Shown here piece by piece: positions 958 through 57,840 of a stretch of 64,000 nucleotides of DNA (position 1 is its first letter; each line of letters begins with the position of its first letter). This DNA comes from Allocoleopsis franciscana PCC 7113 (GTDB lineage Bacteria > Cyanobacteriota > Cyanobacteriia > Cyanobacteriales > Coleofasciculaceae). Below the pieces are notes generated by a model. The model searched no databases. It had not been told where the DNA came from and was given only the letters and a program-made list of their open reading frames with translations. Made by a program: the position numbers and the translations under genes. The stretch spans positions 1 to 64,000 of the forward strand of contig NC_019740.1 in NCBI RefSeq assembly GCF_000317515.1. The letters are read 5' to 3'.

Positions 958-1446
958 CTAAGTTTTGATGTGTGCAACATCGTTATTCAGTTGAGGGTTA
1001 GGCACGTCGAAAATCACCTCGAACTCAGATGCTGGCATATACCGATGTAAAAACCGACGATGGTCTTCTGCATCTTGCCTGTTAAAAAAACGGGCTACTG
1101 TGTAACGTCGAGCATCGGGTAACAGCCGGACAATTGCCCAAGGTCGAGAATAATCTTCAGATTGTTGCACTCGTTGATCGGTTGTGGCTTGCCCTGGTTT
1201 GGGTGTGAGGGCATTTTGGACAATCGCCCACATTTTCTCCCGTGCTGGGCTGGAATCATTCGGTATCAAACTCCAATCGCCCACGGGGGCGGGTAGCCAG
1301 GTGAGAGTATAATCGTCCTGACCCTCTTGGGAAAGCTGCCAGGAGAGACGGCGGGATTGTTTCTTGCACTGATAACCTTGTTGGCGAAAAACGGCACAAA
1401 TCTGTTCGCCTTCTTTATTGAGGCGAAGCCAATCCGAATGTTTCAT
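958..1446 (-). CDS. Cassette protein C, first copy (unknown function)
   Basis: 162 residues that I do not recognise. It is clearly homologous to the protein at 14671-15114. Both begin MKHSDWLRL. Both share the C-terminal block RPWAIVRLLPDARRYTVA followed by FFNRQDA, an LHR(Y/F)MPA segment and EFE(V/I)(I/V)FD. The middle, around the T-rich linker, is variable. It looks like a small soluble two-part protein with no signal peptide or membrane segment. It is the last gene of an A-B-C cassette read on the minus strand, about 280 bp after gene B. The repeated gene order argues that the three proteins act together. Function unknown. Confidence 0.8.
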   Translation of the reverse strand: MKHSDWLRLNKEGEQICAVFRQQGYQCKKQSRRLSWQLSQEGQDDYTLTWLPAPVGDWSLIPNDSSPAREKMWAIVQNALTPKPGQATTDQRVQQSEDYSRPWAIVRLLPDARRYTVARFFNRQDAEDHRRFLHRYMPASEFEVIFDVPNPQLNNDVAHIKT

Positions 1447-1526
1447 TGGTCTAAAAGGGTGTAATCGGTAAATCAGGGTGAGCGCTCTTAAGATGGGATT
1501 TCAGCGCTTTTGATGTTGAGAAAAAA

Positions 1527-1563
1527 GCGACCGCTCTTGTCACGAGCTCATAAGAGCGATCGC
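1527..1563. repeat. Hairpin between cassette genes B and C
   Basis: An imperfect palindrome pairs GCGAccGCTCTT with AAGAGCgaTCGC around a short loop. A related hairpin with AAGCGCTCT/AGAGCGCTT arms sits between the same two genes in the second cassette (14538-14588). It may act as a terminator or RNA-processing site that sets the level of gene C relative to A and B. Confidence 0.5.
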
Positions 1564-1726
1564 CTGCCACAAGCTTGTAATAACATGGAAATTGATACAA
1601 AAATCACACGACTACTGTTCCATAGGCACAACACAGAATATCTAGATGGACTGTAGTTACCCTAATTTGAGAATGTGTGGCAAAAATATGGGATTTTCCT
1701 ATTGACATCCTCATGATTTTCTGTAT

Positions 1727-2023
1727 CTACCGACCGAGACAGAGACGATGCAAAAGCGTCTCTGGGATGTCTTCGTAGCATTCCAACAAGATATCCGCCA
1801 GAGCCAAATACCACTTGTGGTAATGTCTGGGGGGTTGGTAATGGCGTCCTCGCCGAAACCACTGGTTAACCGTTGTGATGTCACACCGACATAGCTGCGA
1901 CATTTGCTCGTAGGTCACATCCCATTTCTCATAAAATTGGCGAGGGGTCATTTCCAGTCGGCAGTTGGCAAAACGCGCAATGAGCCGTAGTTCTCGCTCA
2001 CCGATGGGGCGGGGATTTCTCAT
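1727..2023 (-). CDS. Cassette protein B, first copy: small helix-turn-helix protein
   Basis: 98 residues starting MRNPRPIGERELRL. Residues about 25-60 (MTPRQFYEKWDVTYEQMSQL, then TTVNQWFRRG) look like a helix-turn-helix in which the last helix reads TTVNQWF. The start codon overlaps the stop of gene A by ATGA (2020-2023), so translation is coupled. The open frame extends upstream to 2182, but that extension overlaps gene A and is Cys-rich, so I chose the internal ATG. The second copy, at 14091-14393, shares MTPRQFYxKWxVTYE. It is probably the DNA-binding member or autoregulator of the cassette; this is inferred. Confidence 0.8.
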   Translation of the reverse strand: MRNPRPIGERELRLIARFANCRLEMTPRQFYEKWDVTYEQMSQLCRCDITTVNQWFRRGRHYQPPRHYHKWYLALADILLECYEDIPETLLHRLCLGR

Positions 2024-2565
2024 GATTCCTCCCCGATTCGCGCTAAGTCCTCTTCCCAAGCAGTGGCAGCAACAACCCAAGCAGCACTTGAACTCGTGGA
2101 ATCGAGCCACAGAATGTAACGCCACATCCAACAGCAGCGGTGAGGGGCATAGTTGTAGAAGCGCCCAATCACCACTCCCCATTCGGAGCTGTTCACGGAA
2201 ACTATCGCCCCAAATTCAAACCGGGGTTTTGGTGCGTTATTAGGAAAGTCAGACGGTAAGGAAGCTGACTGGGGAAACTCTAGGGTAATGGGACGAGAAA
2301 ATACATCGGCGTTGCCGTGACGGTGAGCATTGAAATAACCACTCATGAGCTTTCCGTTGAGGCTACCCGTTAGCTGATTGATGAGTAGGGCGGCAATTGA
2401 GTCGAGTTCCTCTGGCTCTAGGTGTAGCTCTTGGGCATTGAAGTCAGCATCTTGAAAATGACTCAGCGTTTCGAGAAGTTCGGTGATACCGAAATCGTCT
2501 AGGGCTTGCTGATAAGCACAAGAACTCCCTGCCAGATACTCTGACGAGGGTTGATTGTTTGGCAT
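2020..2565 (-). CDS. Cassette protein A, first copy (unknown function)
   Basis: 181 residues with start MPNNQPSSEY, chosen because GGAGGT lies 8 bases upstream on the minus strand. Homologous to 13462-14001. Both have YQQALDDFGI near the N-terminus, a helical middle (ALLINQLTGSLN versus MLIERLTTSLN), and a Trp-rich C-terminal block WG(V/I)V(I/L)GRFY.YA.HRC...WWKY-like, ending TAWEEDL. That C-terminal block resembles a small beta-barrel such as an SH3-like fold, but this is a guess. First gene of the A-B-C cassette. No known family recognised. Confidence 0.8.
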   Translation of the reverse strand: MPNNQPSSEYLAGSSCAYQQALDDFGITELLETLSHFQDADFNAQELHLEPEELDSIAALLINQLTGSLNGKLMSGYFNAHRHGNADVFSRPITLEFPQSASLPSDFPNNAPKPRFEFGAIVSVNSSEWGVVIGRFYNYAPHRCCWMWRYILWLDSTSSSAAWVVAATAWEEDLARIGEES

Positions 2566-2752
2566 GATTAAAGAACCTCCATGAACATTTGGAGTTAGCC
2601 GCGCTTTCCGGCTTCCCAACCACTAAGCGCGGCTTTTCCATCCTGAAATAATTATGTACATAACAAATACAAGAGTCAAATTAGGGAAATGACATCAGTT
2701 ATGGCTATAATCCCCGTCGAGAGAGACAACTTCAGCTAGTCAAAGCAAACTC

Positions 2753-2995
2753 ATGTCAGTAGAAAAAGGCGGCGAATCGGGACGACCTCTTAAGTGGGGT
2801 GAGCGAAAGGCAAGAACAACTTTTTCCCTCACCCCTTGGGCGATCGATGAACTCGATAAGATAGCGAAGAGATTCAACCTGAGTAAGTCAGAGCTAATTG
2901 AGCAGCTCACTCGCGGTCGATTTGTACTCATTCCAAAGGAGGGTGAGACGGCAGAAGTAATAAAAAAGCCCTCAGGCGGCACATCGCCTCTTTAA
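2753..2995 (+). CDS. Ribbon-helix-helix protein with possible -1 frameshift extension
   Basis: 80 residues in the zero frame. RTTFSLTPWAIDELDKIAKR followed by LSKSELIEQLTRG is a ribbon-helix-helix (CopG/MetJ-like) DNA-binding fold. The zero frame stops at 2995, but A AAA AAG in the correct phase at 2962-2968 could shift ribosomes into -1. They would then add ALRRHIASLNDEEC... and a charged, probably coiled tail ending ...NSDEDES at 3096, about 114 residues in all. It may be a plasmid-type regulator that works with the partition genes just downstream. It could also simply be a frameshifted gene. Confidence 0.75.
   Translation: MSVEKGGESGRPLKWGERKARTTFSLTPWAIDELDKIAKRFNLSKSELIEQLTRGRFVLIPKEGETAEVIKKPSGGTSPL
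2962..2988 (+). promoter_or_regulatory. Candidate programmed -1 frameshift signal
   Basis: The heptamer A AAA AAG is phased as X XXY YYZ relative to the gene starting at 2753 (codons ATA AAA AAG). Five bases later AGGCG-gcacat-CGCCT forms a 5-bp stem. This is the classical slippery-site plus stimulator layout, as in bacterial dnaX. The -1 frame then stays open for 42 codons to TGA at 3094-3096, which overlaps the ATG of the next small frame. Confidence 0.5.
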
Positions 2996-4300: not shown

Positions 4301-7300
4301 TTAGACTCCTTGCTCCCGGAGAATTCGACTTTTTACATCTTCGGGCAACCTTTCATCATTCAAGAGCACATTCAGCAAAGGCGCGTTTTTCCCTTGAGCG
4401 TGGACGATCGCGACCGCAACGGCACACATATTCGCCACGGGGAGCACCCGATCGCCGATAACAAAATCATCTCGGACAATTTGCTCCAACAATTTATCAT
4501 TATGTTTAGCTAATTTATTCAGAAGTCCTGTAATCACTAACTTATCGATTTTGCGACTGATATCGGTTGACCGCAAAAGGGCACGCGTATGTTCAGCGAG
4601 TTGGGGCATCAACCTGACATCTTTCAGATTCGTCATTTGATTCAAACTGATGAAGGCTGAATGAGCCACCATGTCAAGAGTTTTTTGATTTTTTTCGTTG
4701 ACCAGGTTATGAGTTAAATTCAAAGCGGCTTCCGCTAACGCTAAGGAAATAGAAACATTTCCCGAAAGATGATTCCAAATTAAACAGTTCAGTAATTTAT
4801 ATAAAAGCAGCACCACCTCTGGAGCCTGCTCGTTAGCTAATGTATCGAAGACGGTGAGAATTTCTGGCTCGGTAACTTCTAAACCAGAGTCAATAGCGGC
4901 TATTAATGCCTTTAAACAGTTCTGACGCACTCCAACTATTTTAGAGCGAGCTAATACTGGAAGCAGTTGAGAAACATTTATTGATTTGTGTTGTTCGGCA
5001 AAAGCGAGAATTATCCAGGATGCATCACGGGCAACATCGATAGACTCATCTAAACAAAATTGCAGGATGTTAGAGAGAGCGAATGATGAGCCATGTTCGG
5101 CTTGACGCTGGTAAATTTTTAATAAGGCTGACCGGGATTCTTTAGATTTTGCCGTTTGCTGGAGATAGGGTTCTAGCTGTTCGGGAATGTGGCTGAGTTT
5201 TTTAAGAATTGGATTGGTTTGGTTTTGGGGTAAATTGGGGAGCAACTGTTGGAGGAGTTGTCCGAGTAGGTGTTGTACTGGGGGAGAATCAGTTGCCAGT
5301 GCATCAATGACACGAATTAATTCGATAGGATGTTGATGAACTAAAGGGACAACCCATTGAGCTAAAGCTAATCTTAATTCTGGGTCTACTTGAGATTTTC
5401 CTCGAATTGGAGCGGCAATTTCTCTCAAGAGGGTCGATAGTGATGATATCCGGTTTTGCAGAAGGGTTGTGATAGGAATTTTCAATAAAATAGAAGCCAC
5501 TTTGTTGCTGGCTCCACTATTGATAGCTTCTTGAATCGCGATGAGATTGCAGCGATTAAAATCTTTAGATTCTTGGGATTGACTATCTGTAAATAGATGT
5601 TCGATTAAGGTTTCCAATACGTCTGGAACTAAGGCAGCTTGTTGACCGACAACGCCTGCCACTACTGAAGTCCAATCTTTGTCAAGGGGAGTGTGGAGGG
5701 CTTCAACCCAGGAGGTTCCAAAGGGTGAATCGGGCGAGGAGAGCCAGTTGGGAAGTAAATACTTGAGCAGTTCTTTTACTTTTTCCTTTTCCCGGCATTG
5801 CTCGGAAGCGGGTTTTTGCACAATCGCTAGAAGCAATTCTCGTTGGATTAATTCAGGGACTCCAGGCTTTAAATAAAGGTCAACGACCAGAGAACGAACG
5901 TTGCCACCAAATATAAAATAATAGTCTGTTAAAAGGGAAAGAACATCTAAGTCAATTTGGCGTTCCCAATGTGGAAGAGCTTTATTGTAATAAGTTGCGA
6001 TTAGTTGACCATAGATATGGTATAATTCTTGTTGGCTATCGAGCGCTTTTGCTGTTCGGTTTTTGACGGCGTCTAAGGCTTGTTGAAAGCGATCGCGTTT
6101 GGCTGTGTTTAGGCGAGTTAACAGTTCACCCGCTATCTCGGTTGTCTTGTTAATCAGTTCTCGGCCGACTTTTTCTAGGAGTTTTACAATGATTTGCCAG
6201 ACCATTTCCCCGTGACGGTTGGGGGCGGAATTGGCGGCAATCAGCAGTGCTTCTTGGTAAGCGTAGTCTTTTGTGAGTGCGATCGCCAGCAAGGGGAGTA
6301 AGATTGAGGAGGACTCTGGTTCGCTGCGGGATACTGAGGCGAAGGCAACGGAGCGAAACGGGAGTAGTTGGGTTTTGTCCAACTCGTCACAAATCTGGTA
6401 AAATTCGCTCAAACTCACGAGAGTCAACAGTTGACGAAAGACTGCCCAGATATAGTATTTCGAGTAAGTGTTTTGTGAGGCTTTGAGTTCATTTTTTAAC
6501 TGTTTTCGGGCGCATTCTCCGGAATCTGTGGAGTAAAGCCAGCGAGCGATGGCGTATTCTAAAAAGGTTTGGTGGAAAAAGACTATTCGCTTCCCGCCGA
6601 TTTCTTTGATGACTCCGTCACTTTTTAGTTCGGAGTAGGCCAAAAATTCGGTTTCATCTAAGTTGAGATTGCTTTCATACAGAGAGTCTCGCAGGCGTTC
6701 GTCGGACTTTTTGTACATCGCCTCCGCAATCTCCAGGCACAGCTTTTCTTTGGCGAGGCAGACTTGCATTGAGGGCAAATTCTTCCGGACTTTGGCAATT
6801 TTCCAATCCCAATACTTGGCGTAGAGTTGGCTAACGGTTAAGTCTTCTGGGACGTTTTCTTCTTGGGCAAATAAATCGCACAGTAACGCCAAGAGTAAGG
6901 GGTTGCGGGTAATTTCTTGCAGGGATTGACTGTCGGCGGAAAGGGCAATAATTTTATCGGCAAATTCTTCACCGCTACGGGTGGCATTAGCTTTTTGTTT
7001 GATTTTGACGAATTCGCGTGCTGCTTGTTTGACTTCGTCATTGTTGAAGAGGGGAATTTTGCAGCCATCGTTAACGCTGTGGCGAAACCCGGCAAAGCTT
7101 TCGTGATAGGGTTCAAAAAAGTAACTGTAATCTTGGTCGCGGCAGGTGAAGACGAGGGTGGTGCCAGATTCCAAGAGTTCAAATAGGAGGATGCGGAGGA
7201 CGGGAACGAGGGGTTTGGTTAAAACGATGTCTAGGGTGTCTAAAAGCAGCACGCCTTTGCCGTACTGTTGGTTGAGTTGTTGGGCAATCTGTGCAATTGA

Positions 7301-7915
7301 CTCTCTAGTGCCGCTAATTTTTTCTCCTAGTTCAGTGGCAAAGGTATCAACGGATTCAATCAGGTCGTCGCATCTTGCCAATGCTATCCAACCGGAGTTG
7401 GTGTTGGCTAGTTCTTCTTCTAGTTCATCGTAGATATTGCCGAGGATGGTGCTTTTGCCATATCCCGCCGAACCGATAATGGGAATCACGTTTTGTTTTT
7501 CGGCTTGAAGGCTGTGGCGGATGGCTTTGAGGCATTTTTCTAGGAGTGCTTCGCGGCGGATACGGGGCAGAATGTAGGGGTCTAAGGCGCGTCGGGTACG
7601 GGTGGCGTTGCGTTGTACCGTTGAGATGAGTGGGTCGGAAAAACTGACTGATGGTTCTTCGGACTCAGGTTCTTCTGCTGCTGGGTTGCTGGGTGATGGG
7701 GAAACGATTTCTTCCCAGTCTAGGTTCAGTTCTTGGCAAATTTCGATGAAGATTGAACGGTCAACGGGTCTGCCATTGAAGAATTTGTTGACGGTTGACC
7801 AGGAGGCGATTCCTCTTTCGTTGGCTAGTGCTTTTTGGGTTAGGTTGTTGCGGTTTAAGGCATTTTTCGCTTTTTCGATGCCTTGAGGGGATGCCTGAAG
7901 AGATCGTCCTGCCAT
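4301..7915 (-). CDS. STAND-type NTPase with N-terminal HTH
   Basis: 1204 residues. Residues about 10-70 form a Cro-like HTH (NNLTQKALANERGIASWSTV, then NKFFNGRPVDR). An acidic linker follows. The NACHT/NB-ARC-like NTPase has Walker A GSAGYGKST at 148-156 and Walker B GVLLLDTLDIVL at about 221-232. The rest, about 750 residues, is alpha-helical and repeat-like (HEAT/TPR style), the usual sensor region of STAND proteins. STAND proteins with this plan are often signalling ATPases, and some (the Avs group) are antiphage sensors. I see no N-terminal nuclease or protease effector, so DNA binding may be the output. Its place between a partition cassette and CRISPR arrays fits a defence role, but that is inferred. 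Confidence 0.75.
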   Translation of the reverse strand: MAGRSLQASPQGIEKAKNALNRNNLTQKALANERGIASWSTVNKFFNGRPVDRSIFIEICQELNLDWEEIVSPSPSNPAAEEPESEEPSVSFSDPLISTVQRNATRTRRALDPYILPRIRREALLEKCLKAIRHSLQAEKQNVIPIIGSAGYGKSTILGNIYDELEEELANTNSGWIALARCDDLIESVDTFATELGEKISGTRESIAQIAQQLNQQYGKGVLLLDTLDIVLTKPLVPVLRILLFELLESGTTLVFTCRDQDYSYFFEPYHESFAGFRHSVNDGCKIPLFNNDEVKQAAREFVKIKQKANATRSGEEFADKIIALSADSQSLQEITRNPLLLALLCDLFAQEENVPEDLTVSQLYAKYWDWKIAKVRKNLPSMQVCLAKEKLCLEIAEAMYKKSDERLRDSLYESNLNLDETEFLAYSELKSDGVIKEIGGKRIVFFHQTFLEYAIARWLYSTDSGECARKQLKNELKASQNTYSKYYIWAVFRQLLTLVSLSEFYQICDELDKTQLLPFRSVAFASVSRSEPESSSILLPLLAIALTKDYAYQEALLIAANSAPNRHGEMVWQIIVKLLEKVGRELINKTTEIAGELLTRLNTAKRDRFQQALDAVKNRTAKALDSQQELYHIYGQLIATYYNKALPHWERQIDLDVLSLLTDYYFIFGGNVRSLVVDLYLKPGVPELIQRELLLAIVQKPASEQCREKEKVKELLKYLLPNWLSSPDSPFGTSWVEALHTPLDKDWTSVVAGVVGQQAALVPDVLETLIEHLFTDSQSQESKDFNRCNLIAIQEAINSGASNKVASILLKIPITTLLQNRISSLSTLLREIAAPIRGKSQVDPELRLALAQWVVPLVHQHPIELIRVIDALATDSPPVQHLLGQLLQQLLPNLPQNQTNPILKKLSHIPEQLEPYLQQTAKSKESRSALLKIYQRQAEHGSSFALSNILQFCLDESIDVARDASWIILAFAEQHKSINVSQLLPVLARSKIVGVRQNCLKALIAAIDSGLEVTEPEILTVFDTLANEQAPEVVLLLYKLLNCLIWNHLSGNVSISLALAEAALNLTHNLVNEKNQKTLDMVAHSAFISLNQMTNLKDVRLMPQLAEHTRALLRSTDISRKIDKLVITGLLNKLAKHNDKLLEQIVRDDFVIGDRVLPVANMCAVAVAIVHAQGKNAPLLNVLLNDERLPEDVKSRILREQGV

Positions 7916-8789: not shown

Positions 8790-10793
8790 TTACATCTTCC
8801 AAGTCATCGGTCGATAAATCTCCTGTTCCCCCATCAAACAGGCGATATATTCCCACACCTGCAACTCCAAACAGCGACGGTTACTCACCTTGTATCCCGT
8901 ATGAGGGTGCGTCATCTTACTTTGCAACCTCTCCTCCCAATGCTTGAGATACTTCTTCAAAGCATCCGGAAAGAGATACACCCCACCCCGCTCATCCGGT
9001 GGTGTAAAATCTTCCAAGACAAAAATCTTAGAATTCACCAAATAAGCCACCAGCGAATCCACCAACAGCGCCCGAAATTCCTCCATCAAATCACTCACCA
9101 ACGCTGGGTGATTGTTGCGGGGGACGTGCAAATTCCCAAAGTGAGGATGCAACCCCACCGTCTGCACCATCGAATACATATTCTGACTTAGCAGCGTGTA
9201 CCCCAAACTGAGTAAACTATTCACCGGGTCAGTGGGTGGACGCTTGGTGCGCTTTTCAAACACAAAGGGTTCTTTAAACAACGTCCCCAGCGCTTGAAAA
9301 TACAGATGGGAACCGTGTCCCTCATATCCCAGCAACACCTCAATCGACTCGGCATCCGGCACATCCAACATCAGCAGCGCCAAGCTATCAATCGCCTTTG
9401 CCGCCTTTTCCGACTTAACGCGACGGTTCAACCGCATCAACAGAATTCGGGAATTGTGCAACTTCCCCAACACGATACTTTTTGCCTGCCGCCTGGTAAA
9501 GTCTGGGTCGAGGGCGCACTGCACCTGACGCACCAGATACTCCACCTCCGCCTGTCCTTCAGTTTGCAATCGTCCGAAATAGCGCCCCTTCTGGGACAGG
9601 TACAGCACTGGAATCCGTCGCCGCAACGCTAAACTTACCGCCCCGTGCGATAAATTGCAGCAACCAAACAGTACAATATGGCTCACTCGATTCACGGGAA
9701 CTTTGCAGCGCAGTTCACCTTGATAAAACACCACAAACTGCTGGTGTTCTACCTTTAAATACGCCCCTTGGTCAGTAATATAAAGTGTGGTCATCGGTTC
9801 CTTCCAATAATGGTCTAAATCAGCAATGGGAAATTGGGACCGTTTAACGATGTTGCAAGTTTTGGGAGGTCGGGATTTGAGTTTGGGCGGTTGCCGAGTT
9901 TTCCGGCGAGAGGGACTTCCCGACTCGGAAAAGGCTTCGCTATCTTCGTTCACCACAGGGGGGGGTGCGGTTACAGTTCCCCCGGCAAACTGATAGCCCA
10001 AAAAGGTAAACTCCTCATCCGGAGCAAAAATCTTTGTCTTTTCCGGTTGCAGAGTTAAGTACAGTTGCGCCAAGCCAGTGGTAATTTGTTCTAAAGCGCG
10101 ATTGGCTTGTATCCAGTCGGGAGCAACCACAACAAAATCATCGCCATAACGCACTAAATTAAGGCCGTGACTCAGGCATTGTCGGTCAAATTCCGTGAGA
10201 TACAAATTGGCTAATGCACCGGAAAGTACTGCTCCTTGTAATACGCCTTTTTGAGGAAAAAGGCGTTGACCTTTAATGACAATTCCGGCTTTGAGTTGCT
10301 GTTCAATCAATTGCAGGACAATGGGTTCAAGCTGCAACTGTTCTAAATGGGTGAACAACAAGGCATGGCAGAGATTGTCAAAAAATTGGGCAATATCTGC
10401 TTTAATCACCCAAGTGGGTTGGAATTGGTAGTAAGATTCCAGATGTTGCACCGCCATCTGAATTCCTCGTCCGGGACGATAGGCGTAACTGCAATCGAGA
10501 AAGGTATCTTCTAAGGGGAGATAAAGTTCTTCGAGTAACAAGCGTTGGACAATTCTGTCGAGGACGACGGGAATGCCAATTAACCGCTTGCCTCCCCTGG
10601 TTTTGCGTAGGTAAAATCCCAGTGCGGGATGGGCAGCGTAGTGTTCCTGTTGCAGTTGGCGCTGTAAAGAATACAACTGTTCTTTAGCAACGCCGGCAAA
10701 CAAGTCTGTGGTAATTCCATCAATTCCTGCACTGCGACTCCCTCGACGTACTTGCCGCCAAGCGGCGATTAAATCTTCTAAGGGAAAGTCCAT
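8790..10793 (-). CDS. cas1: Reverse transcriptase-Cas1 fusion
   Basis: 667 residues. The N-terminal group II intron-type reverse transcriptase has KADIAQFFDN (Asp133) and the active-site YGDD at 216-219. A proline/basic linker follows (about 275-330), then a full Cas1 from about residue 334. The Cas1 catalytic positions are present: Glu491 in GYEGHGSHLYF, His562 in NNHPALVSDLMEEF, and Glu571/572. There is no fused Cas6 domain at the N-terminus. RT-Cas1 proteins of type III systems integrate spacers from RNA through cDNA. Divergent from the separate cas1 gene; array B lies between them. Both genes carry the same 19-bp box about 100 bp upstream of the start. Confidence 0.95.
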   Translation of the reverse strand: MDFPLEDLIAAWRQVRRGSRSAGIDGITTDLFAGVAKEQLYSLQRQLQQEHYAAHPALGFYLRKTRGGKRLIGIPVVLDRIVQRLLLEELYLPLEDTFLDCSYAYRPGRGIQMAVQHLESYYQFQPTWVIKADIAQFFDNLCHALLFTHLEQLQLEPIVLQLIEQQLKAGIVIKGQRLFPQKGVLQGAVLSGALANLYLTEFDRQCLSHGLNLVRYGDDFVVVAPDWIQANRALEQITTGLAQLYLTLQPEKTKIFAPDEEFTFLGYQFAGGTVTAPPPVVNEDSEAFSESGSPSRRKTRQPPKLKSRPPKTCNIVKRSQFPIADLDHYWKEPMTTLYITDQGAYLKVEHQQFVVFYQGELRCKVPVNRVSHIVLFGCCNLSHGAVSLALRRRIPVLYLSQKGRYFGRLQTEGQAEVEYLVRQVQCALDPDFTRRQAKSIVLGKLHNSRILLMRLNRRVKSEKAAKAIDSLALLMLDVPDAESIEVLLGYEGHGSHLYFQALGTLFKEPFVFEKRTKRPPTDPVNSLLSLGYTLLSQNMYSMVQTVGLHPHFGNLHVPRNNHPALVSDLMEEFRALLVDSLVAYLVNSKIFVLEDFTPPDERGGVYLFPDALKKYLKHWEERLQSKMTHPHTGYKVSNRRCLELQVWEYIACLMGEQEIYRPMTWKM

Positions 10794-10981: not shown

Positions 10982-11239
10982 ACCTTGACAATTGAATGGT
11001 CGGCAAATGCTCATTGATATTTATGGAGAGAGCTAAAGAACACCTATATGGGGGAGTCGGGCGATCGCTAAAACTCTCATGATTTCGTAGACCCCCCCAT
11101 ATTGCTCTCTGGGTAAGGATTTCAGGCTTTCGATCTGGGGGATTAGTGAGAATTAGTCTCAACTATATGGGGTGATTTTAGACCCCCCCATATACAGGTA
11201 TCTTGAACTCTCTCCCAGTAAGGAGTCCAGAATGGTAGG
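10982..11239 (+). promoter_or_regulatory. Leader of array B
   Basis: It begins with ACCTTGACAATTGAA (10982-10996), whose TTGACA looks like a -35 box. It then carries the G-rich motif in variant form (TATATGGGGGAGTC near 11045), GACCCCCCCATATTG near 11090, and GACCCCCCCATATAC near 11185. A CTCTCCCAGTAAGGAGTCC box lies next to the first repeat. The layout matches leaders A and C. Confidence 0.75.
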
Positions 11240-11789
11240 GTTTCAAATCTCTTCCCCTTTACGGGGACGGAAACTGTATGCTTCAAGCGGTGTTTTACCG
11301 CTCTGGATTAGTTTCAAATCTCTTCCCCTTTACGGGGACGGAAACGCAACGTTCATAATAAGAACACTGCTACTTCCGTCATCCGGTTTCAAATCTCTTC
11401 CCCTTTACGGGGACGGAAACATTTGGCTGGGCATAGGTATATGTGCCTGATCCGATTAGTTTCAAATCTCTTCCCCTTTACGGGGACGGAAACCCTAGGG
11501 TTCTTTTCCTTTCTTTCTCACAATCATTGAGTTTCAAATCTCTTCCCCTTTACGGGGACGGAAACGTGGTGGTATTTCGGGGGATGTACCGGGGTTGGGC
11601 TGACTGGGGGTTTCAAATCTCTTCCCCTTTACGGGGACGGAAACATTGTAAAACCATAACTTTGGAAACTTTCTCCCTCGATAAAGTTTCAAATCTCTTC
11701 CCCTTTACGGGGACGGAAACCGGTTTGGGTTCGGACGGGGTTTTCTCCGCTAACGTTTCAAATCTCTTCCCCTTTACGGGGACGGAAAC
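11240..11789 (+). CRISPR. CRISPR array B (8 repeats)
   Basis: Eight identical 35-bp repeats start at 11240, 11311, 11386, 11459, 11531, 11610, 11686 and 11755. They begin GTTTCAAATCTCTTCC and end ACGGGGACGGAAAC. Spacers are 34-44 bp. The end of spacer 2 (11364-11385) is identical over 22 bases to the start of the array A spacer at 8083-8121, both read in crRNA orientation. No degenerate final repeat is seen. The neighbours RT-cas1 and cas1-cas2 are the probable adaptation machinery. Confidence 0.97.
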
Positions 11790-11987: not shown

Positions 11988-12989
11988 ATGAACAACCTTT
12001 ACATCACTGGCACTGAGTCGTATCTAAAAGTCCAAGACCAACATTTACTGGTTTTTCACCCCCATAAACCCTGCTGCAAAGTAGCAATCAATCAGGTCAA
12101 CAATCTTGTTCTCATTGGCTACTGTAAGCGGTCTGATAAAGCCATATATTTCGCTTTATCCCGATGCATTCCTGTACTGTTCCTTGATGATAAAGGCAAT
12201 TATTTCGGACGCATCGAGACGGAAGAACGGCGTCGAGTGAAATACTTAGCCCACCAACTCAAACGTGCAAAAGACCTTGAATTTACAAGAGCAATAGCAG
12301 AGAGTATCGTCCGAGCCAAATTGCATAATTCCTGCACTTTGCTGCGGCACTTTTCTCATTGCCATCCGACAAAAGCGACTCAAACAACTCTTGATGCTAT
12401 GGCGCTGTTGTTGGATGATTTACCCCTTGCCGATTCAGTGGACGTGCTGCGGGAATATGGGCAAACAGCAACAAAACTCTACTTTCAATCTTTGGGTTGT
12501 TTGTTCGCTGGAGCGCTCAATTTTGACCAACCAATTCAACACCAACCGACTCACCCCATCAACAGCCTGTTGAATTTAGGTTACACCCTGTTGAATCAGA
12601 ATATTTATGCCCTGCTGCAAGCTGTAGGGTTGCACTCTCATTTTGGCAATTTGCACATTCATCGCGACCATCATCCCGCCTTAGTCGCTGATTTTATGGA
12701 AGAATTTAGCGCCTTGTTGGTGGATGCTCTGGTGGTGGATTTGGTAATTCTTCAGCTATTTACCCCAGCGGATTTTACCTTACCCGATGCGCGAGGTGGA
12801 GTGTATCTCTATCCCAATGCCATCAATAAATTCATCCAGTATTGGGAGAAGACGTTGCAGAGTGAGGTGAATCATTTGTACGCCGGAACTGTGAACTATC
12901 AGCAGTGCTTGGAATGGCAAGTGCAGGAGTATGTTGCTTGCTTGCTCGGCGAACGGGAATTTTATCGACCGTTTTTAAGTAAAAAGTAA
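11988..12989 (+). CDS. cas1: Stand-alone Cas1 lacking the catalytic Glu
   Basis: 333 residues, a full-length Cas1 closely related to the Cas1 half of the RT fusion. A gapless alignment around the first metal ligand pairs GYEGHGSHLYF of the fusion with EYGQTATKLYF here, so the catalytic Glu is Gly. The later ligands are kept (HHPALVADFMEEF). Cas1 forms the integrase with Cas2. A Cas1 missing this Glu should not integrate by itself, so it may be a structural partner of RT-Cas1 or a decaying copy. The gene is followed 39 bp later by cas2, so the pair forms an operon. Confidence 0.92.
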   Translation: MNNLYITGTESYLKVQDQHLLVFHPHKPCCKVAINQVNNLVLIGYCKRSDKAIYFALSRCIPVLFLDDKGNYFGRIETEERRRVKYLAHQLKRAKDLEFTRAIAESIVRAKLHNSCTLLRHFSHCHPTKATQTTLDAMALLLDDLPLADSVDVLREYGQTATKLYFQSLGCLFAGALNFDQPIQHQPTHPINSLLNLGYTLLNQNIYALLQAVGLHSHFGNLHIHRDHHPALVADFMEEFSALLVDALVVDLVILQLFTPADFTLPDARGGVYLYPNAINKFIQYWEKTLQSEVNHLYAGTVNYQQCLEWQVQEYVACLLGEREFYRPFLSKK

Positions 12990-13028: not shown

Positions 13029-13310
13029 ATGGCGTTTTATTTGGTTTGCTACGACATCGTCAAAGACAGTCGCCGCAATAAAGTAGCACATTTGTTGGAA
13101 GGTTACGGCTTGCGAGTCCAGAAGTCAGTGTTTGAAGTTGTACTGGATGAACAGCAGTATGAAAAGCTGCAAAAAAGGCTGCTGAAGTATCTCAATCAAC
13201 GGGAAGACCAACTTAGATTTTATCCCCTATCAGCTCGGAATCGAAGTAAGGTCTTAGTGCTGGGAGTGCAGCCAGAATTTGCAGTAGATGATGCGGCATT
13301 TATTGTTTAG
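13029..13310 (+). CDS. cas2: Cas2
   Basis: 93 residues. YLVCYDIVKDSRRNKVAHLL near the N-terminus holds the conserved Asp of the ferredoxin-like fold. GYGLRVQKSVFEV is the classical Cas2 second block. It acts as the dimeric core of the Cas1-Cas2 integrase. It is the only cas2 I find in the window, so both RT-Cas1 and the stand-alone Cas1, and perhaps the distant type I Cas1, may depend on it. Confidence 0.95.
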   Translation: MAFYLVCYDIVKDSRRNKVAHLLEGYGLRVQKSVFEVVLDEQQYEKLQKRLLKYLNQREDQLRFYPLSARNRSKVLVLGVQPEFAVDDAAFIV

Positions 13311-13461: not shown

Positions 13462-14001
13462 ATGAGTCAACCTGTGAATGATATCAGAGACAATCCATCT
13501 ACAGCTTTGTCAGGTTATCAACAAGCTTTGGATGATTTCGGCATCATTCAGTTACTCCAGAAATTGATTTTACTGGCTCCAACGGAGTTCAAGGTTGAGG
13601 AACGAGAAAGCTTAGCGACGATGCTAATTGAGCGGTTAACCACGAGTCTCAATCGTTCCCTGATTGACCAATGCCTCAACCCGATTTATCCCTGCCATGA
13701 AGGTGTAATTTCTGACCTAATTACCACTGAACTCAACGCCCTTCCGTCTTCCATCAATTTGGCGGAAAACTTTTCTTACTACCTTTCTTTTGCCTACTTT
13801 GTCGTTGGCGAAAAAGTTCAGTGGAAGCCCATCTTTGAACCAACTGACTGGGGGATAGTGCTTGGTCGATTCTACGCCTATGCTCACCATCGCTGTCGTT
13901 GGGGTTGGAAGTATGTGATTTGGTTGGCTCAAGATTCACCCAGTTCAGCTTGGACTATTGTCGATACGGCTTGGGAAGAAGATTTGGTAAGGAAAAAGTA
14001 A
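13462..14001 (+). CDS. Cassette protein A, second copy (unknown function)
   Basis: 179 residues, start MSQPVNDIRD with AAGGAG 9 bases upstream. Paralogue of 2020-2565: shared YQQALDDFGI, the helical middle, WGIVLGRFYAYAHHRCRWGW, and the ending TAWEEDL. It lies 150 bp after cas2 on the same strand and may be carried on the cas1-cas2 transcript. First gene of the A-B-C cassette in its second, plus-strand copy. Function unknown. Confidence 0.8.
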   Translation: MSQPVNDIRDNPSTALSGYQQALDDFGIIQLLQKLILLAPTEFKVEERESLATMLIERLTTSLNRSLIDQCLNPIYPCHEGVISDLITTELNALPSSINLAENFSYYLSFAYFVVGEKVQWKPIFEPTDWGIVLGRFYAYAHHRCRWGWKYVIWLAQDSPSSAWTIVDTAWEEDLVRKK

Positions 14002-14090
14002 AAAGTAAGAGGGATTATTTTGCCTTTTACCTTTTACCTTCAGCTCCATTGTTACCAATCCAATATCCAAAATCTAAAATCTAAAATTCC

Positions 14091-14393
14091 ATGAGCAATC
14101 CTCGTTCTCTGACTCAACGTGAACTAGACTTAATTGAACTTTACAGCCACTGCGAACTGGGGATGACACCCAGACAATTCTATGCCAAATGGCAGGTAAC
14201 TTACGAGCTTATTGCTGCTATTTGTTCCCGTTCTCTGTCTACTGTTAGCAGTTGGTTTTCTCGTGGTGGTAACTATCGCCGTCCTACTCCAAACGACTTG
14301 CGTCATCTAGCTTTGATGGATTTCCTGTTAGAACACGAGATTTCGGACGAACTTTTCAGTTTGCTGTGCCGCCCTTGGGAAAGTCAAAAGTAA
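14091..14393 (+). CDS. Cassette protein B, second copy: small helix-turn-helix protein
   Basis: 100 residues, MSNPRSLTQRELDLIELYSH then MTPRQFYAKWQVTYELIAAI and STVSSWFSRGGNY. Same layout as 1727-2023, with a probable HTH whose recognition helix reads STVSSWFSR. Unlike the first copy it does not overlap gene A. About 90 bp of AT-rich repeat (AAAAGTAAGAGGG and CCAAAATCTAAAATC types) has been inserted between them. Function inferred only as DNA binding. Confidence 0.8.
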   Translation: MSNPRSLTQRELDLIELYSHCELGMTPRQFYAKWQVTYELIAAICSRSLSTVSSWFSRGGNYRRPTPNDLRHLALMDFLLEHEISDELFSLLCRPWESQK

Positions 14394-14537
14394 AAAGTTA
14401 AAAGGTAAAAGAGTGCCAATTCTCTTTTTATTTTTTAGGCGAATAGCATAGATTTAGTGCAATGTCTATGTTAGCCCGAAATTTCTTGAGATAGCCATTG
14501 TTTATTAGGTTTAGGTTAGGTTACGAGCACAAAAGAT

Positions 14538-14588
14538 AAGCGCTCTACAGCTTGGCTGAATAGCGGCAGCTTCCGCGTGAGAGCGCTT
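14538..14588 (+). terminator. Hairpin between cassette genes B and C, second copy
   Basis: Arms AAGCGCTCT (14538-14546) and AGAGCGCTT (14580-14588) are followed by TTCC. It sits at the same place in the cassette as the palindrome at 1527-1563. Termination or RNA processing is possible. Confidence 0.5.
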
Positions 14589-14670
14589 TTCCTCTCCAAA
14601 ACTATCTGCTTGTTCCAGGATGCAAAAACCAGCGCATCCCATCAAGTCCTTCAACTGGTGTTATTTAACC

Positions 14671-15114
14671 ATGAAACATAGCGATTGGCTGCGCCTTCAC
14701 AACGAGGGCGAGACTATTTGTGCAACTCTCCGGCAAAAAGGCTATCACTGTCAAAAACAAGCCCGCCGTTTGTCTTGGTGGGTGAGTCAGGAGGGGAGTC
14801 ATTCCTACGTCCTGACTTATTTAACCACACCCGTGAGTGAATGGAGCATCATGCCTAACGATGCCCATCCGGCAAGGGAGAAGCTCATTTCAATTGTACA
14901 GAGTGCCCTGGATAATCAAGAAGAGGGGGTTACGACTGAGCAACCCCCTGAATACGACCCCCGTCCTTGGGCCATTGTCCGTCTTTTACCCGATGCTCGT
15001 CGGTATACAGTTGCGAAGTTTTTTAATCGCCAGGACGCGCATGATCATTTGAGGATGTTGCATCGGTTTATGCCGGCAGCGGAGTTTGAAATCGTCTTTG
15101 ATGCGGTTGACTAG
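14671..15114 (+). CDS. Cassette protein C, second copy (unknown function)
   Basis: 147 residues from MKHSDWLRLH. The frame is open 17 codons further upstream, but homology to 958-1446 begins at this Met. It shares the blocks RPWAIVRLLPDARRYTVA, FFNRQDA, the LHRFMPA segment and EFEIVFD. It is shorter than the first copy at the C-terminus and in the central linker. Last gene of the second cassette; array C and its leader follow. Function unknown. Confidence 0.8.
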   Translation: MKHSDWLRLHNEGETICATLRQKGYHCQKQARRLSWWVSQEGSHSYVLTYLTTPVSEWSIMPNDAHPAREKLISIVQSALDNQEEGVTTEQPPEYDPRPWAIVRLLPDARRYTVAKFFNRQDAHDHLRMLHRFMPAAEFEIVFDAVD

Positions 15115-15224
15115 TGCAACGCGGCAAAAGTTTTCCACCATTCCCCCGCTGCCAATGTGGCTTGACATTGAGCCAGAATTTGGATACCCTAACGTTAGGT
15201 TAGGGTAATTGTACTAATAGCTGT

Positions 15225-15494
15225 ACCTTGACAACTGAAGATTAGTTAACTAAACGTTTTCCAGCAAGTAATTTGGCTTCGCTGAGTTCCGTCAGCCGCT
15301 TTTATGGGGGGGTCAGGCAAGGGCTGAAATCCTTATTTTTCGTAGACCCCCCCATATAGCGCTCTGGATAAGGGTTTGAGGCTATGGAGAGAGGTATTTA
15401 TTGATAATTAGTCTCAACTATTAGGGTCAATTTTAACCCCCCCCATATTTCGCTATCTCGAATTCTCTCCCAGTCAGGGTTCTAATATGGGAGG
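15225..15494 (+). promoter_or_regulatory. Leader of array C
   Basis: Starts with ACCTTGACAACTGAA (15225-15239), with a TTGACA -35-like box. GTTCCGTCAGC follows, then TATGGGGGGGTCAGGCAAGG, GTAGACCCCCCCATATAGCG and a third ACCCCCCCCATATT. A CTCTCCCAGTCAGGG box precedes the first repeat. TATGGGGGGGTC and GACCCCCCCATA can pair as a long hairpin. Nearly the same as leader A read on its own strand. Confidence 0.75.
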
Positions 15495-16256
15495 GTTTCA
15501 ATTAACTTCCCCTTTACGGGGACGGAAACTTTCCTAGCTCTCTCGGTTGCGTCTGTTGGAGTTAAGTGTTTCAATTAACTTCCCCTTTACGGGGACGGAA
15601 ACATTTCTGGGCTATTGGTACCGGGTGTGGGCATCGCCGGTTTCAATTAACTTCCCCTTTACGGGGACGGAAACTTCTGACCCTAGACGCAGCTTCTTCT
15701 GGACTTAAATAGTGTTTCAATTAACTTCCCCTTTACGGGGACGGAAACTCGGATGGAATTAGAGCTTTCATACACAGTTCCGTGTTTCAATTAACTTCCC
15801 CTTTACGGGGACGGAAACATAGCGGCAATGGCAACAACGATGGCGATGAAATTTTGTTTCAATTAACTTCCCCTTTACGGGGACGGAAACCCAATTTGGT
15901 AACCACTAACTAGTTCATTTTCCACTAAGTTTCAATTAACTTCCCCTTTACGGGGACGGAAACTCATACACAGTTCCGTCAACCGTGGCCAAACGCGAGC
16001 GTTTCAATTAACTTCCCCTTTACGGGGACGGAAACATTTTACGCTTTTCAAGGCATTCTTCGTGTAGAAATAATAGTTTCAATTAACTTCCCCTTTACGG
16101 GGACGGAAACATTGTTCTGATTGAGTGTTTCGCCAAGCACCCCGATTGGTTTCAATTAACTTCCCCTTTACGGGGACGGAAACGCGAGTCCTACCGATGT
16201 TGCGAAAACACTGATTGCACTTGTTTCAATTAACTTCCCCTTCACGGGGACGGAAC
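15495..16256 (+). CRISPR. CRISPR array C (11 repeats)
   Basis: Repeats of 35 bp start at 15495, 15568, 15640, 15714, 15784, 15856, 15929, 16001, 16076, 16149 and 16223. They begin GTTTCAATTAACTTCC and end ACGGGGACGGAAAC. The eleventh is degenerate (CTTCACGG inside, GGAAC at the end, 34 bp), marking the leader-distal end. Spacers are 35-40 bp. Spacers 4 (15749-15783) and 7 (15964-16000) share TCATACACAGTTCCGT as the end of one and the start of the other, so they come from overlapping protospacers on the same strand. Confidence 0.97.
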
Positions 16257-16430
16257 GAATCCAGTCCGGAAAGGGATAGGTTATCTGCGTATAGTTCAAA
16301 AAACTTTCCTTTTACTTTGTCAATAGTGGAAGTTGGTTGTTATCACTTCCCACTCCTTCTCTTCCACTGAAATCAGGGTCTTCCATAACTATCTAAAATC
16401 ACCACAACAGATTAAGTAAAGCAGAGACCC

Positions 16431-21722: not shown

Positions 21723-22343
21723 TTAAATGCCTACTAACTCATTAAGCTGAATTTCGCATTGTTGAAATACATAGTTAACAGCAGCAAAAAGTTTATCGAG
21801 TTCATAAATTGTGTAAGGAGTAACATTTTGAGTAAAAATCTGCCCTTCTAGCTTGCCAAATTGCCATGTTGCTCCATTAGAGACAATTGCAAATATAGTA
21901 ATCTTTACTTCGTCATTTAATCTTTGTGCTGCAACCATTTCAGCTAAACACTGCGCCCACCCTTCGTCGAATTTGTCTTGCTTTGCCTCAACTAATAGAA
22001 AATAAGGCTTGCCAAACACAAATTTCCCTAAAGGAGAACGTTTAGCCAAAATATATTCAGGAAAACCTGAAAGATTCTCATCGTAGGTAAGTGACTTATG
22101 GCTCCAGAGAACAAACTTACTATAATAAAGTTTCCAGACTTCTTTGATAACTGGATATATCAAGTTTTCACAAATAGCAAACTCGGAATTGTCTACAACA
22201 GCTTCTCGTATCATAAATTCCAAGTCTTCCCGAAAATAATCAGGGATACTAAAGTTAGCTGCTCCCATGAAATTAGCTGTGGTGTAAGTGACTTGAAATT
22301 CTTGAAGAACTTCACCGATGTCTTTATAACTGCTGAACCCCAT
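21723..22343 (-). CDS. PD-(D/E)XK-type nuclease-like protein, copy 1
   Basis: 206 residues. The core FLLVEAKQDKFDEGWAQCLAE near residue 117 has the E-x-K of a restriction-endonuclease fold. An acidic YDENLSGFPEYILAKR lies about 25 residues earlier. It is one of three paralogues here (also 22371-22991 and 43729-44349). Two of them stand in tandem inside the III-D operon, between RAMP genes. Many cyanobacteria carry this family, and I know no established function. An accessory nuclease role is inferred from context only. Confidence 0.7.
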   Translation of the reverse strand: MGFSSYKDIGEVLQEFQVTYTTANFMGAANFSIPDYFREDLEFMIREAVVDNSEFAICENLIYPVIKEVWKLYYSKFVLWSHKSLTYDENLSGFPEYILAKRSPLGKFVFGKPYFLLVEAKQDKFDEGWAQCLAEMVAAQRLNDEVKITIFAIVSNGATWQFGKLEGQIFTQNVTPYTIYELDKLFAAVNYVFQQCEIQLNELVGI

Positions 22344-22370: not shown

Positions 22371-22991
22371 TTAAGTTACTACTAATTGACTGAATTGCAA
22401 TTCACACTGTTGAAAAACATAGTTGACCGCAGCAAATAACTTATCTAGCTCCTGAATCGTGTAGAAAGTTTTATTCAGGGTAAAAATATTAGTTTTGAGT
22501 TTGCCAAATTGCCAGCGATCGCCATTGGAAACAATACCAAAGATGAGAATTCGTAGTTCATCATTAAGTCGCTGTGCCGCCACCATTTCAGCTAGACACT
22601 GCGCCCACCCTTCGTCGAATTTATCTTGCTTTGCCTCAACTAATAAGAAATAAGGTTTGTCAAACACGACTTTCCCCAAAGGAGAACGTCGAGCTAAAAT
22701 ATATTCAGGAAATCCGGAAAGATTCTCATCGTAAGTCAGTGACTTATGACCCCATAAAACGAAGTTGCTACGATAGTATTTCCAAACTTCTTTAAGAATT
22801 GGATAAATTAGATTTTCGCAAATTGAAAATTCTGAAGCACTAGGTACTCCATCTTGCATAACGGTTTCTAGGTCTTCTCTAAAGTAGTCAGATATACTAA
22901 ATTCAACTTTATGAATGAAGTTGGCTTCGGTGTAGGTAATTTGAAATTCCTTGAGAACTGTAGCGATATCTTTATAATTACTGAAAGCCAT
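22371..22991 (-). CDS. PD-(D/E)XK-type nuclease-like protein, copy 2
   Basis: 206 residues, same length and layout as the next gene downstream (21723-22343). It shares SYKDI near the start, ENLIYPxxKEVWK, SLTYDENLSGFPEYILA, and FLLVEAKQDKFDEGWAQCLA. The divergence lies mainly in the first 50 residues and in the C-terminal third, so the tandem is not a very recent duplication. The ATG overlaps the end of the upstream RAMP gene by 14 bp, and a GGAGG-like site precedes it, so it is translated with the effector operon. Confidence 0.7.
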   Translation of the reverse strand: MAFSNYKDIATVLKEFQITYTEANFIHKVEFSISDYFREDLETVMQDGVPSASEFSICENLIYPILKEVWKYYRSNFVLWGHKSLTYDENLSGFPEYILARRSPLGKVVFDKPYFLLVEAKQDKFDEGWAQCLAEMVAAQRLNDELRILIFGIVSNGDRWQFGKLKTNIFTLNKTFYTIQELDKLFAAVNYVFQQCELQFSQLVVT

Positions 22992-33204: not shown

Positions 33205-33224
33205 CTGCAACTCCAGCGGAGAAA

Positions 33225-43569: not shown

Positions 43570-43728
43570 GTTGTTGCCCGTTACGTGGAGGAGGAAGTAT
43601 TAGTATGGCCTGGGAAAGAGGCAATACATTCTCAAATCACCAGTAAATTTGTTCACTACAGTTATAGAAGCAGATGATAGGCTAACCCTGACCGGAACAA
43701 GTCTTGAATGCTTAATCGCGAGGTCAAT

Positions 43729-44349
43729 ATGGCTTTCAGTAGTTACAAGAGCATCAGTGCAGTTGTCAAAGAATTTCAGGTTAAATACACCGAAGCAGAG
43801 TTCATCAATGAAATAGAATTCAACATCCCCGACTACTTCAGAGAAGACTTACAAACCGTCATGCGGGAAGGAGTCGTTGATAACTCAGAATTTGCCATTT
43901 GTGAAAATTTAATTTATCCCGTCTTGAAAGAAGTCTGGAAGTGCTATCGCAGCAAGTTCCTGTTGTGGAGTCACGAGTCACTCACCTATGATGAAAATCT
44001 TTCAGGCTTTCCCGAATATATCTTGGCGAAACGCTCACCGTTGGGAAAAGTTGTCTTTGACAAACCGTACTTACTTTTAGTCGAAGCCAAACAAGATAAG
44101 TTTGAAGAAGGGTGGGGTCAGTGTCTCGCTGAAATGATTGCCGCGCAACGACTGAATGAAGACCCGCAAATGACAGTTTTCGGGATTGTTTCTAACGGAG
44201 CAATCTGGCAATTCGGTAAGCTGAAAGCCGATATCTTTACCAGAAATATTACCCTTTACAGCATTCAGGAGCTAGATAAGCTCTTTGCCGCTGTTAACTA
44301 TATTTTCCGCCAGTGTGAATTGCAACTTGACGAGAAAGTAGCGGCTTAA
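43729..44349 (+). CDS. PD-(D/E)XK-type nuclease-like protein, copy 3
   Basis: 206 residues from MAFSSYKSIS. The frame opens 7 codons earlier, but the homologues start here and GAGG precedes this ATG. Same family as 21723-22343 and 22371-22991: ENLIYPVLKEVWK, SLTYDENLSGFPEYILAKRS, LLLVEAKQDKFEEGW. This copy stands alone, 20 kb from the other two, just before a 9-bp repeat tract. It shows that the family is not strictly tied to the CRISPR operon. Confidence 0.7.
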   Translation: MAFSSYKSISAVVKEFQVKYTEAEFINEIEFNIPDYFREDLQTVMREGVVDNSEFAICENLIYPVLKEVWKCYRSKFLLWSHESLTYDENLSGFPEYILAKRSPLGKVVFDKPYLLLVEAKQDKFEEGWGQCLAEMIAAQRLNEDPQMTVFGIVSNGAIWQFGKLKADIFTRNITLYSIQELDKLFAAVNYIFRQCELQLDEKVAA

Positions 44350-57820: not shown

Positions 57821-57840
57821 CTGCAACTCCAGCGGAGAAA

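What the first reader, a model, noticed from the sequence alone, without database searches (positions are those of the whole stretch)
958..2565. Unknown three-gene cassette (A-B-C), first copy
Seen: three small genes on the minus strand, A and B overlapping by ATGA, with a hairpin before C. All three have homologues in the same order at 13462-15114. B has a probable HTH. A ends in a Trp-rich block. C has a strongly conserved C-terminal block. Conserved order in two diverged copies implies a functional unit. None of the proteins belongs to a family I recognise.
Basis: partly seen in the sequence, partly recalled or inferred. Interest (0 to 1): 0.72.

Follow-up and report, generated by a model that had tools for sequence, protein, structure and literature searches.

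The report
CRISPR-linked regulatory gene cassette in cyanobacteria
A small, undescribed set of cyanobacterial genes (two copies here) sits right behind one kind of CRISPR memory-making genes, often with a relative of known bacterial toxins, and looks like a portable control or guard switch for immunity genes.

Summary
A-B-C occurs twice in the window, and the copies are diverged (43/46/65% identity), intact and unmatched by Pfam, NCBIfam or PADLOC. B is an Xre-like helix-turn-helix protein. The end of A is an SH3-like barrel. C has an alpha-beta4-alpha domain and a separate small domain that also occurs alone and fused to the start of A.

Relatives show two architectures. (1) Free-standing: a divergent ribbon-helix-helix gene, then a hairpin 24-36 nt before the start codon, then A-B-C; this is copy 1. 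(2) CRISPR-linked: cas1-cas2-[Rel]-[A]-B-C; this is copy 2, which lacks Rel. Rel is an 89-aa relative of RelE toxins.

In 386 cyanobacterial genomes, 17 of the 21 cas2 genes closest to the window's carry a cassette gene downstream (B in 15). None of 14 more distant cas2 loci does. All 13 strong Rel places lie right after cas2. B joined cas2 in several lineages.

Most likely this is a mobile, self-controlled transcription-regulator cassette taken up by RT-Cas1 adaptation loci, with Rel adding a guard. Function is inferred, not shown. I found no description in the open literature searched. It counts as a new variant of a known kind.

The parts
2020..2565 (-). A, copy 1 (181 aa): N-terminal helical domain (nA) + C-terminal SH3-like barrel (cA); stop overlaps start of B (ATGA)
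   Evidence: AlphaFold model (residues 101-180 pLDDT about 76-91, N-terminal part under 57)
1727..2023 (-). B, copy 1 (98 aa): Xre-like helix-turn-helix protein
   Evidence: profile comparison with Xre proteins 86% probability, controls 0.1% or less
958..1446 (-). C, copy 1 (162 aa): nC alpha-beta4-alpha domain + cC beta-beta-alpha-beta domain
   Evidence: AlphaFold model (mean pLDDT 78)
1527..1563 (-). terminator-like hairpin between B and C, copy 1
2597..2634 (-). conserved hairpin 31 nt upstream of A (10-bp perfect stem, 18-nt loop)
   Evidence: controls
2753..2995 (+). divergent ribbon-helix-helix (CopG-type) gene, probable regulator of copy 1
   Evidence: Pfam RHH_1 22.8 bits over its cut-off of 20.5; divergent RHH gene conserved in relatives
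13462..14001 (+). A, copy 2 (179 aa), directly after cas2
14091..14393 (+). B, copy 2 (100 aa)
14535..14591 (+). inverted repeat between B and C, copy 2 (12 nt arms, 33 nt apart)
   Evidence: fold not significant (z -0.7)
14671..15114 (+). C, copy 2 (147 aa from the conserved MKHSDW start; open frame begins 14620)
11988..12989 (+). second cas1, upstream of copy 2 (context)
13029..13310 (+). cas2, directly upstream of copy 2 (context)
8790..10793 (-). RT-Cas1 fusion (context)
15338..16259 (+). CRISPR leader and 11-repeat array directly downstream of copy 2 (context; the leader is 80% identical to 11083-11275)

Best explanation
A-B-C is a portable, self-controlled regulatory cassette. B, an Xre-type DNA-binding protein, forms a repressor or antitoxin-like complex with A (SH3-like barrel) and C. 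The cassette has attached itself several times to the spacer-acquisition genes of one clade of cyanobacterial CRISPR systems (the clade of the window's cas2, which goes with RT-Cas1 and type III-B). There it replaces its own control elements (divergent RHH gene plus 5' hairpin) by the cas1-cas2 context and usually gains Rel, a RelE-superfamily protein. In that place it probably controls expression of the adaptation genes. Where Rel is present it makes loss or shut-down of the locus costly (a guard). Shown: conserved order, cas2 linkage, HTH, purifying selection, the two alternative architectures. Inferred: complex formation, DNA targets, regulation of cas1-cas2, toxicity of Rel.
For: B is Xre-like, A and B are translationally coupled in copy 1, and the genes are under purifying selection. 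Unbiased sample of 386 genomes: of 21 cas2 places at E<=7e-27 to the window's cas2, 15 have B and 17 any cassette gene downstream; 0 of 14 fetched more distant cas2 loci do (Fisher P 2e-6). From the other side, 14 of 30 strong B places have cas2 within 1.8 kb upstream; 0.04 expected. All 13 strong Rel places (12 whole, 1 split) lie right after cas2. The link is old and repeated: the B tree needs 6 changes of the cas label, at least 3 forced by well-supported branches. On five annotated plasmids the cassette lies behind cas1-cas2, four of them just before cas10/cmr of type III-B. Free-standing copies carry a divergent RHH gene and a hairpin at a fixed distance. Precedent: divergent RHH_5 (Arc-like) and MerR repressors beside cyanobacterial CRISPR transposons (PMC9938897, passages).
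Against: No function was measured. The cassette is not exclusive to CRISPR: 16 of 30 strong B places have no cas2 within 1.8 kb, several lie beside type I restriction genes, and in one own-genome copy A is split by an insertion and C is broken. The window's copies lack Rel. Rel is intact without adjacent B in two loci, L253 and L256. 4 of 21 clade cas2 loci lack the cassette. One cas2 place outside the clade, not among the 14 controls, has B 4.4 kb away (L155). The A model is poor at its N-terminus.
Confidence: 0.42

Rival explanations
1. A true toxin-antitoxin guard: Rel is an mRNA-cleaving toxin, B (with A/C) its antitoxin. The CRISPR adaptation locus, or the plasmid, is kept because its loss frees the toxin. 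Copies without Rel are leftover antitoxins or pair with another toxin.
For: Gene order toxin then Xre-HTH as in ssl7039-ssl7038 of Synechocystis pSYSA (PMC4963859, passages). Rel's weak matches in other genomes are RelE-type genes beside antitoxin genes. NCBIfam RelE_StbE 0.0055 and Pfam ParE_toxin 0.011, each in 2 of 13 members. A profile comparison with ParE covers the whole length (11%, controls under 0.2%). In one locus Rel is split while B is intact. A VapB/VapC-like pair fills the same slot behind cas2 in L257.
Against: Rel is intact without adjacent B in L253 and L256. Most cassettes, including both window copies, have no Rel. All RelE scores are below curated cut-offs.
Confidence: 0.25
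2. A hitchhiking mobile cassette of the defence/plasmid gene pool: it collects beside cas genes, restriction genes and transposons because these regions exchange DNA, with no role in adaptation.
For: Many paralogues (9 A, 11 B and at least 9 C places in this genome at the limits used); found on plasmids, beside HsdM/HsdS and Tn7-like genes; one IS-broken copy.
Against: Position and strand behind cas2 are fixed and limited to one cas2 clade (17 of 21 versus 0 of 14). Rel is found nowhere else in strong form.
Confidence: 0.2
3. A direct accessory of the Cas1-Cas2 integrase: B/A bind the leader next door and help spacer integration, as IHF or Csn2/Cas4 do elsewhere (analogy recalled).
For: Copy 2 lies directly between cas2 and the leader of an array; B binds DNA by fold; strict linkage to one cas2 clade.
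Against: 4 of 21 clade loci lack it; the same cassette exists far from any cas gene; the C gene sits behind a terminator-like hairpin in copy 1.
Confidence: 0.1

Closest known systems
RelE/HigB-type (toxin first) type II toxin-antitoxin modules with Xre antitoxins
   Same: Rel resembles RelE-superfamily toxins in length and pattern and precedes an Xre-like HTH gene
   Different: window copies have no Rel; two or three extra proteins (A, C); B is kept without Rel and Rel sometimes without B; no activity known
CvkR / Arc_1 / Arc_2 regulators of cyanobacterial type V-K CRISPR transposons
   Same: small DNA-binding repressors, including RHH_5 proteins, encoded divergently beside CRISPR-linked genes in cyanobacteria (PMC9938897)
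   Different: here RHH is lost in the cas-linked form, the controlled genes are A-B-C, and the CRISPR partner is RT-Cas1 adaptation rather than cas12k
CreTA guards of CRISPR-Cas
   Same: a toxin-based guard inside a CRISPR locus is one reading
   Different: CreTA uses an RNA toxin and a crRNA-like antitoxin guiding Cascade (PMC9458426 abstract); here all parts are proteins next to the adaptation genes
RT-CRISPR-3 clade of cyanobacteria (Toro 2017, PMC5541045)
   Same: RT-Cas1 plus a second, more distant cas1, as in this window
   Different: the passages I read do not mention an associated A-B-C or RelE-like gene; clade membership was not tested by a tree here
SH3-like barrels (nitrile hydratase beta, CarD/CdnL, chromo-barrel, UvrD/Mfd RNA-polymerase-binding domains)
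   Same: predicted fold of the end of A (Z 6-7.6)
   Different: no sequence similarity; Z this low may be only a common arrangement

Membership tests
Type II toxin-antitoxin module (RelE/HigBA type) | RelE-superfamily toxin gene in the unit | tested here: not met
   no Rel beside either window copy (own genome has no Rel at E<=0.001)
Type II toxin-antitoxin module (RelE/HigBA type) | RelE-superfamily toxin gene in the cas-linked relatives | tested here: inconclusive
   weak RelE/ParE scores under cut-offs, profile transitivity to RelE-type genes, hhalign 11%
Type II toxin-antitoxin module (RelE/HigBA type) | neighbouring DNA-binding antitoxin (Xre or RHH) | tested here: met
   B is Xre-like; RHH gene divergent in free-standing copies
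Type II toxin-antitoxin module (RelE/HigBA type) | toxicity neutralised by partner | not testable with these tools
   needs growth assay
cas genes (CRISPR-associated families) | conserved adjacency to cas1-cas2 | tested here: met
   17 of 21 clade cas2 loci with a cassette gene, 0 of 14 distant ones
cas genes (CRISPR-associated families) | confined to CRISPR loci | tested here: not met
   16 of 30 strong B places without cas2 within 1.8 kb; Rel alone is confined (13 of 13 strong places)
CRISPR-transposon regulators (CvkR/Arc_1/Arc_2) | divergent RHH or MerR gene upstream of cas12k | tested here: inconclusive
   divergent RHH present at copy 1 (RHH_1; RHH_5 in several relatives); no cas12k search was made
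CreTA | CRISPR-repeat-like antitoxin RNA repressing the toxin through Cascade | not tested
   -
SH3-like RNA-polymerase-binding domains (CarD, UvrD, Mfd) | fold of cA | tested here: inconclusive
   Foldseek best E 3.4e-3 (nitrile hydratase beta), CarD 0.07; VIA Z 7.6 or less

The most novel reading that the evidence does not exclude
Rel-A-B-C are new CRISPR adaptation-associated gene families: a RelE-like effector held by an Xre/SH3/beta-beta-alpha-beta complex that senses or controls RT-Cas1 spacer acquisition in cyanobacterial type III-B systems. It is drawn from a large cyanobacterial family of self-controlled cassettes marked by a new 5' hairpin and a divergent RHH repressor.
Probability: 0.35. 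Interest if true: 0.8.

Novelty: new variant of a known kind. Interest (0 to 1): 0.62.

Why it matters
How RT-Cas1 systems, which can take spacers from RNA, keep acquisition in check is not known to me. A protein cassette fixed behind cas2 in one cas2 clade, with a RelE-like companion found in strong form nowhere else, is a concrete candidate for that control or for a protein guard of CRISPR memory. The free-standing form gives a second, separate lead: a recurring 5' hairpin before genes of an undescribed small-protein family, with a divergent RHH gene.

Tried and rejected
Families: Pfam, NCBIfam and PADLOC gave nothing over a cut-off for A, B or C. PDB sequence search gave nothing meaningful for A, B, C or Rel. 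Viral contigs gave no relative of A, B or C (these scans need exact peptide patterns, so they are weak negatives), and phage records none of C. HicA-like reading of the start of C (my first guess): not supported; the model is alpha-beta4-alpha, nearest KA1/METTL16-like folds at Z 8.3 or less, which may be only a common arrangement; RnlA repeats appear far down the list. The cC domain was barely tested by the fold searches. No known RNA family matches the hairpin.

Pairing of the hairpin loop with the ribosome-binding site: rejected, 4 of 37 hairpins at p<=0.1. The loop occurs in both orientations in different lineages, which argues for a DNA operator as much as for an RNA element; not resolved. 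A first control for the hairpin wrongly included family genes; one search replaces it. A recent tandem duplication as source of the two copies: not supported, since their B proteins fall in different parts of the tree. Strict A-B-C as one fixed operon: rejected for C (orphan C genes). parA as partner: not general.

Not in print: searches of the open-access library returned no listing that describes the cassette. I read passages of PMC5513706, PMC5541045, PMC4963859, PMC12737573, PMC6452270, PMC12669027 and PMC9938897, and of PMC9458426 only the start of its abstract in the listing. Supplements could not be read, and subscription papers are not held.

Full report
What is there. Two copies of a three-gene set, A-B-C, lie at 958-2565 (-) and 13462-15114 (+), 43, 46 and 65% identical in protein. 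The window is the first 64 kb of a 92-kb contig of an 8-Mb cyanobacterial genome. No library names A, B or C. Relatives are under purifying selection: dN/dS 0.06-0.46 in the 12 of 13 A, B, C and Rel pairs with finite dS. Copy 2 follows cas1 (11988-12989) and cas2 (13029-13310) on the same strand. It ends 224 bases before a repeated leader segment that opens an 11-repeat CRISPR array; a second array with an 80% identical leader lies on the other side of cas1. RT-Cas1 lies at 8790-10793 (-).

The proteins. B compares with Xre helix-turn-helix proteins from the same genome at 86% probability (65-row profile; 53% with the smaller one), while A, C, Rel and ParE profiles give 0.1% or less. The end of A is modelled as an SH3-like barrel (residues 101-180 pLDDT about 76-91; the rest is poor, overall 63). 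Its nearest structures are nitrile hydratase beta, chromo-barrels, R67 DHFR and CarD-like domains, Z 7.6 or less. C is modelled at pLDDT 78 as an alpha-beta4-alpha domain (nC; nearest KA1-like, Z 8.3 or less) plus a beta-beta-alpha-beta domain, cC. The cC domain is the widespread part: the C profile finds 62 of 386 cyanobacterial genomes, and the listed matches outside this genome are nearly all confined to that domain. In Microcoleus-type genomes the first domain of A is fused or adjacent to cC without B (9 of the 33 loci found with A).

Conserved order. Of the 33 loci found with A in 84,980 species genomes, 23 have B behind it, 9 have the cC form and 1 ends at the contig edge. Independently, B occurs in 29 of 386 genomes. 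At its 30 strong places outside this genome (E<=2.4e-26), cC follows in 18, an A domain precedes in 9, and cas2 lies within 1.8 kb upstream on the same strand in 14. In the 22 genomes used for the estimate, 52 cas2 places in about 148 Mb predict 0.04 such coincidences.

The CRISPR link, tested from the other side. I searched cas2 of the window in the 386 genomes: 61 places at E<=1e-18. The 21 closest (E<=7e-27, identity 57% or more) form a clear block. 15 have B downstream. G278 has Rel and cC, and G129 has Rel in a locus where cas1 is cut by an insertion. G101, G255, G296 and G213 have none. Of the other 40 places I fetched 14 as controls; none has any cassette gene, though for one (L260) only 0.5 kb downstream is held. 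One of the 26 not fetched as controls, G185:C116, has a B 4.4 kb away (L155). Annotated plasmids agree: cas1-cas2-(Rel)-(A)-B-(C) stands before cas10 and cmr3 of type III-B on Gloeothece Cy782201 and Cy782202, Anabaena cylindrica pANACY.01 and Nostoc TCL26-01, and before parA/parB on Nostoc UHCC 0870. Oscillatoria plasmids and Brasilonema pBOCT2 carry A-B(-C) without cas genes nearby.

Rel. Between cas2 and B (or A) most linked loci have one more gene of about 89 codons. Its 13 strong places in 386 genomes (12 whole, 1 split by a frame change) are all directly behind cas2. Its 9 weak places include RelE-type genes with antitoxin-like genes upstream (my reading). Curated models touch it only below cut-off, and a profile comparison with ParE toxins covers its whole length at 11% against under 0.2% for A, B and C. 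I call it RelE-superfamily by inference. Invariant basic residues and a final histidine would fit a ribonuclease; the comparison with YafQ is recalled.

The free-standing form. Where cas2 is absent, a small RHH gene usually lies divergent to A: RHH_5, RHH_1 or ParG-like by Pfam in the cases scanned, Xre instead in L046, L090 and L166. Between them, 24-36 nt before the start codon, stands a hairpin with an 8-14 bp stem and a loop of about 20 nt. Over 79 upstream regions of first genes with nA, nC or cC, 42 reach score 20, and 35 of these lie 24-36 nt from the start; 347 non-family genes from the same loci give 25 and 3. Many of the 79 are near relatives; the 42 contain 25 distinct stems, with sequences as different as AAGCCAGCG, GCGATCGCTC, GGCGTTAGT and, in window copy 1, AGCCGCGCTT. 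A divergent RHH gene was found for 25 of 42 hairpin genes and 6 of 37 others. A genome-wide search of the commonest stem pattern in 10 genomes gives 17 places; 8 stand just before a cC or nA-cC gene. The cas-linked A genes, window copy 2 included, have neither RHH nor hairpin. So window copy 1 (RHH at 2753-2995, hairpin at 2597-2634) is the free-standing form and copy 2 the CRISPR form, 11 kb apart on one contig.

History. In a tree of 65 B proteins the cas-linked label changes 6 times, at least 3 forced by well-supported branches, against 16.8 in shuffles. The two window copies fall in different parts. The alignment is short (91 columns), so deeper forks are unsure.

How it works. Best reading, with steps marked: B binds DNA (fold shown by profile, target inferred). 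A and C are partners or ligands of B (inferred from order, coupling and fusion). The RHH gene and hairpin control the free-standing form (inferred from position). Behind cas2 the cassette controls adaptation genes, and Rel adds a cost to losing them (inferred). The strongest facts against a strict toxin-antitoxin reading are Rel genes without B (L253, L256) and cassettes without Rel.

Novelty. The parts are of known kinds (Xre, RHH, SH3-like, RelE-like), and regulators or toxins near CRISPR are known in principle (PMC9938897, PMC4963859, PMC9458426). The cassette, its fixed place behind one cas2 clade, Rel, and the hairpin were not described in anything I could search.

Noticed in passing
window 30817-35568 and 55433-60184: Two nearly identical copies of a three-gene Tn7-like transposon set (795, 341 and 414 aa; TnsB/TnsC/TniQ-like by my reading) flank 20 kb that holds Cas3-, Cas4- and Cas1-like genes.
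   Followed up: no
window 21723-22343, 22371-22991, 43708-44349: Three paralogues of a protein of about 206 aa, two in tandem inside the type III gene block.
   Followed up: no
window 4301-7915 (-) and L063 7012-7572: A 1204-aa protein with an HTH-like start and a P-loop motif; the same start occurs as a fragment just before cas2 in another RT-Cas1 locus, so it may also belong to these systems.
   Followed up: no
L257 6043-6659 (-): An RHH plus PIN-like (VapB/VapC-type, by eye) pair fills the slot directly behind cas2 in a clade locus that lacks the cassette.
   Followed up: partly
L280, L281, L282, L283, L286, L292, L295: Single small genes of the cC domain (about 60-80 aa), each 17-35 nt (L283: the hairpin overlaps the longest start) behind the hairpin, some with a divergent RHH gene; a multi-copy cyanobacterial family without a name.
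   Followed up: partly
L080, L082, L083, L280: A further companion gene (119-165 aa, weak HTH_17 score in L280) follows C or cC genes of this genome.
   Followed up: no
L080, L081, L083, L084, L086: Orphan C genes of this genome have Xre-type HTH genes divergent and close by, instead of RHH.
   Followed up: partly
L098 and L101, between cas1 and cas2: A four-helix-bundle protein gene is inserted between cas1 and cas2 on the opposite strand.
   Followed up: no
hairpin loops: The loop core AACTTTC(C) occurs as its reverse complement in Microcoleus-type loci, as if the loop had been inverted between equal arms.
   Followed up: no
window 15185-15207: A perfect 9-nt inverted repeat (TACCCTAAC/GTTAGGGTA) between C copy 2 and the CRISPR leader; possible operator.
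   Followed up: no
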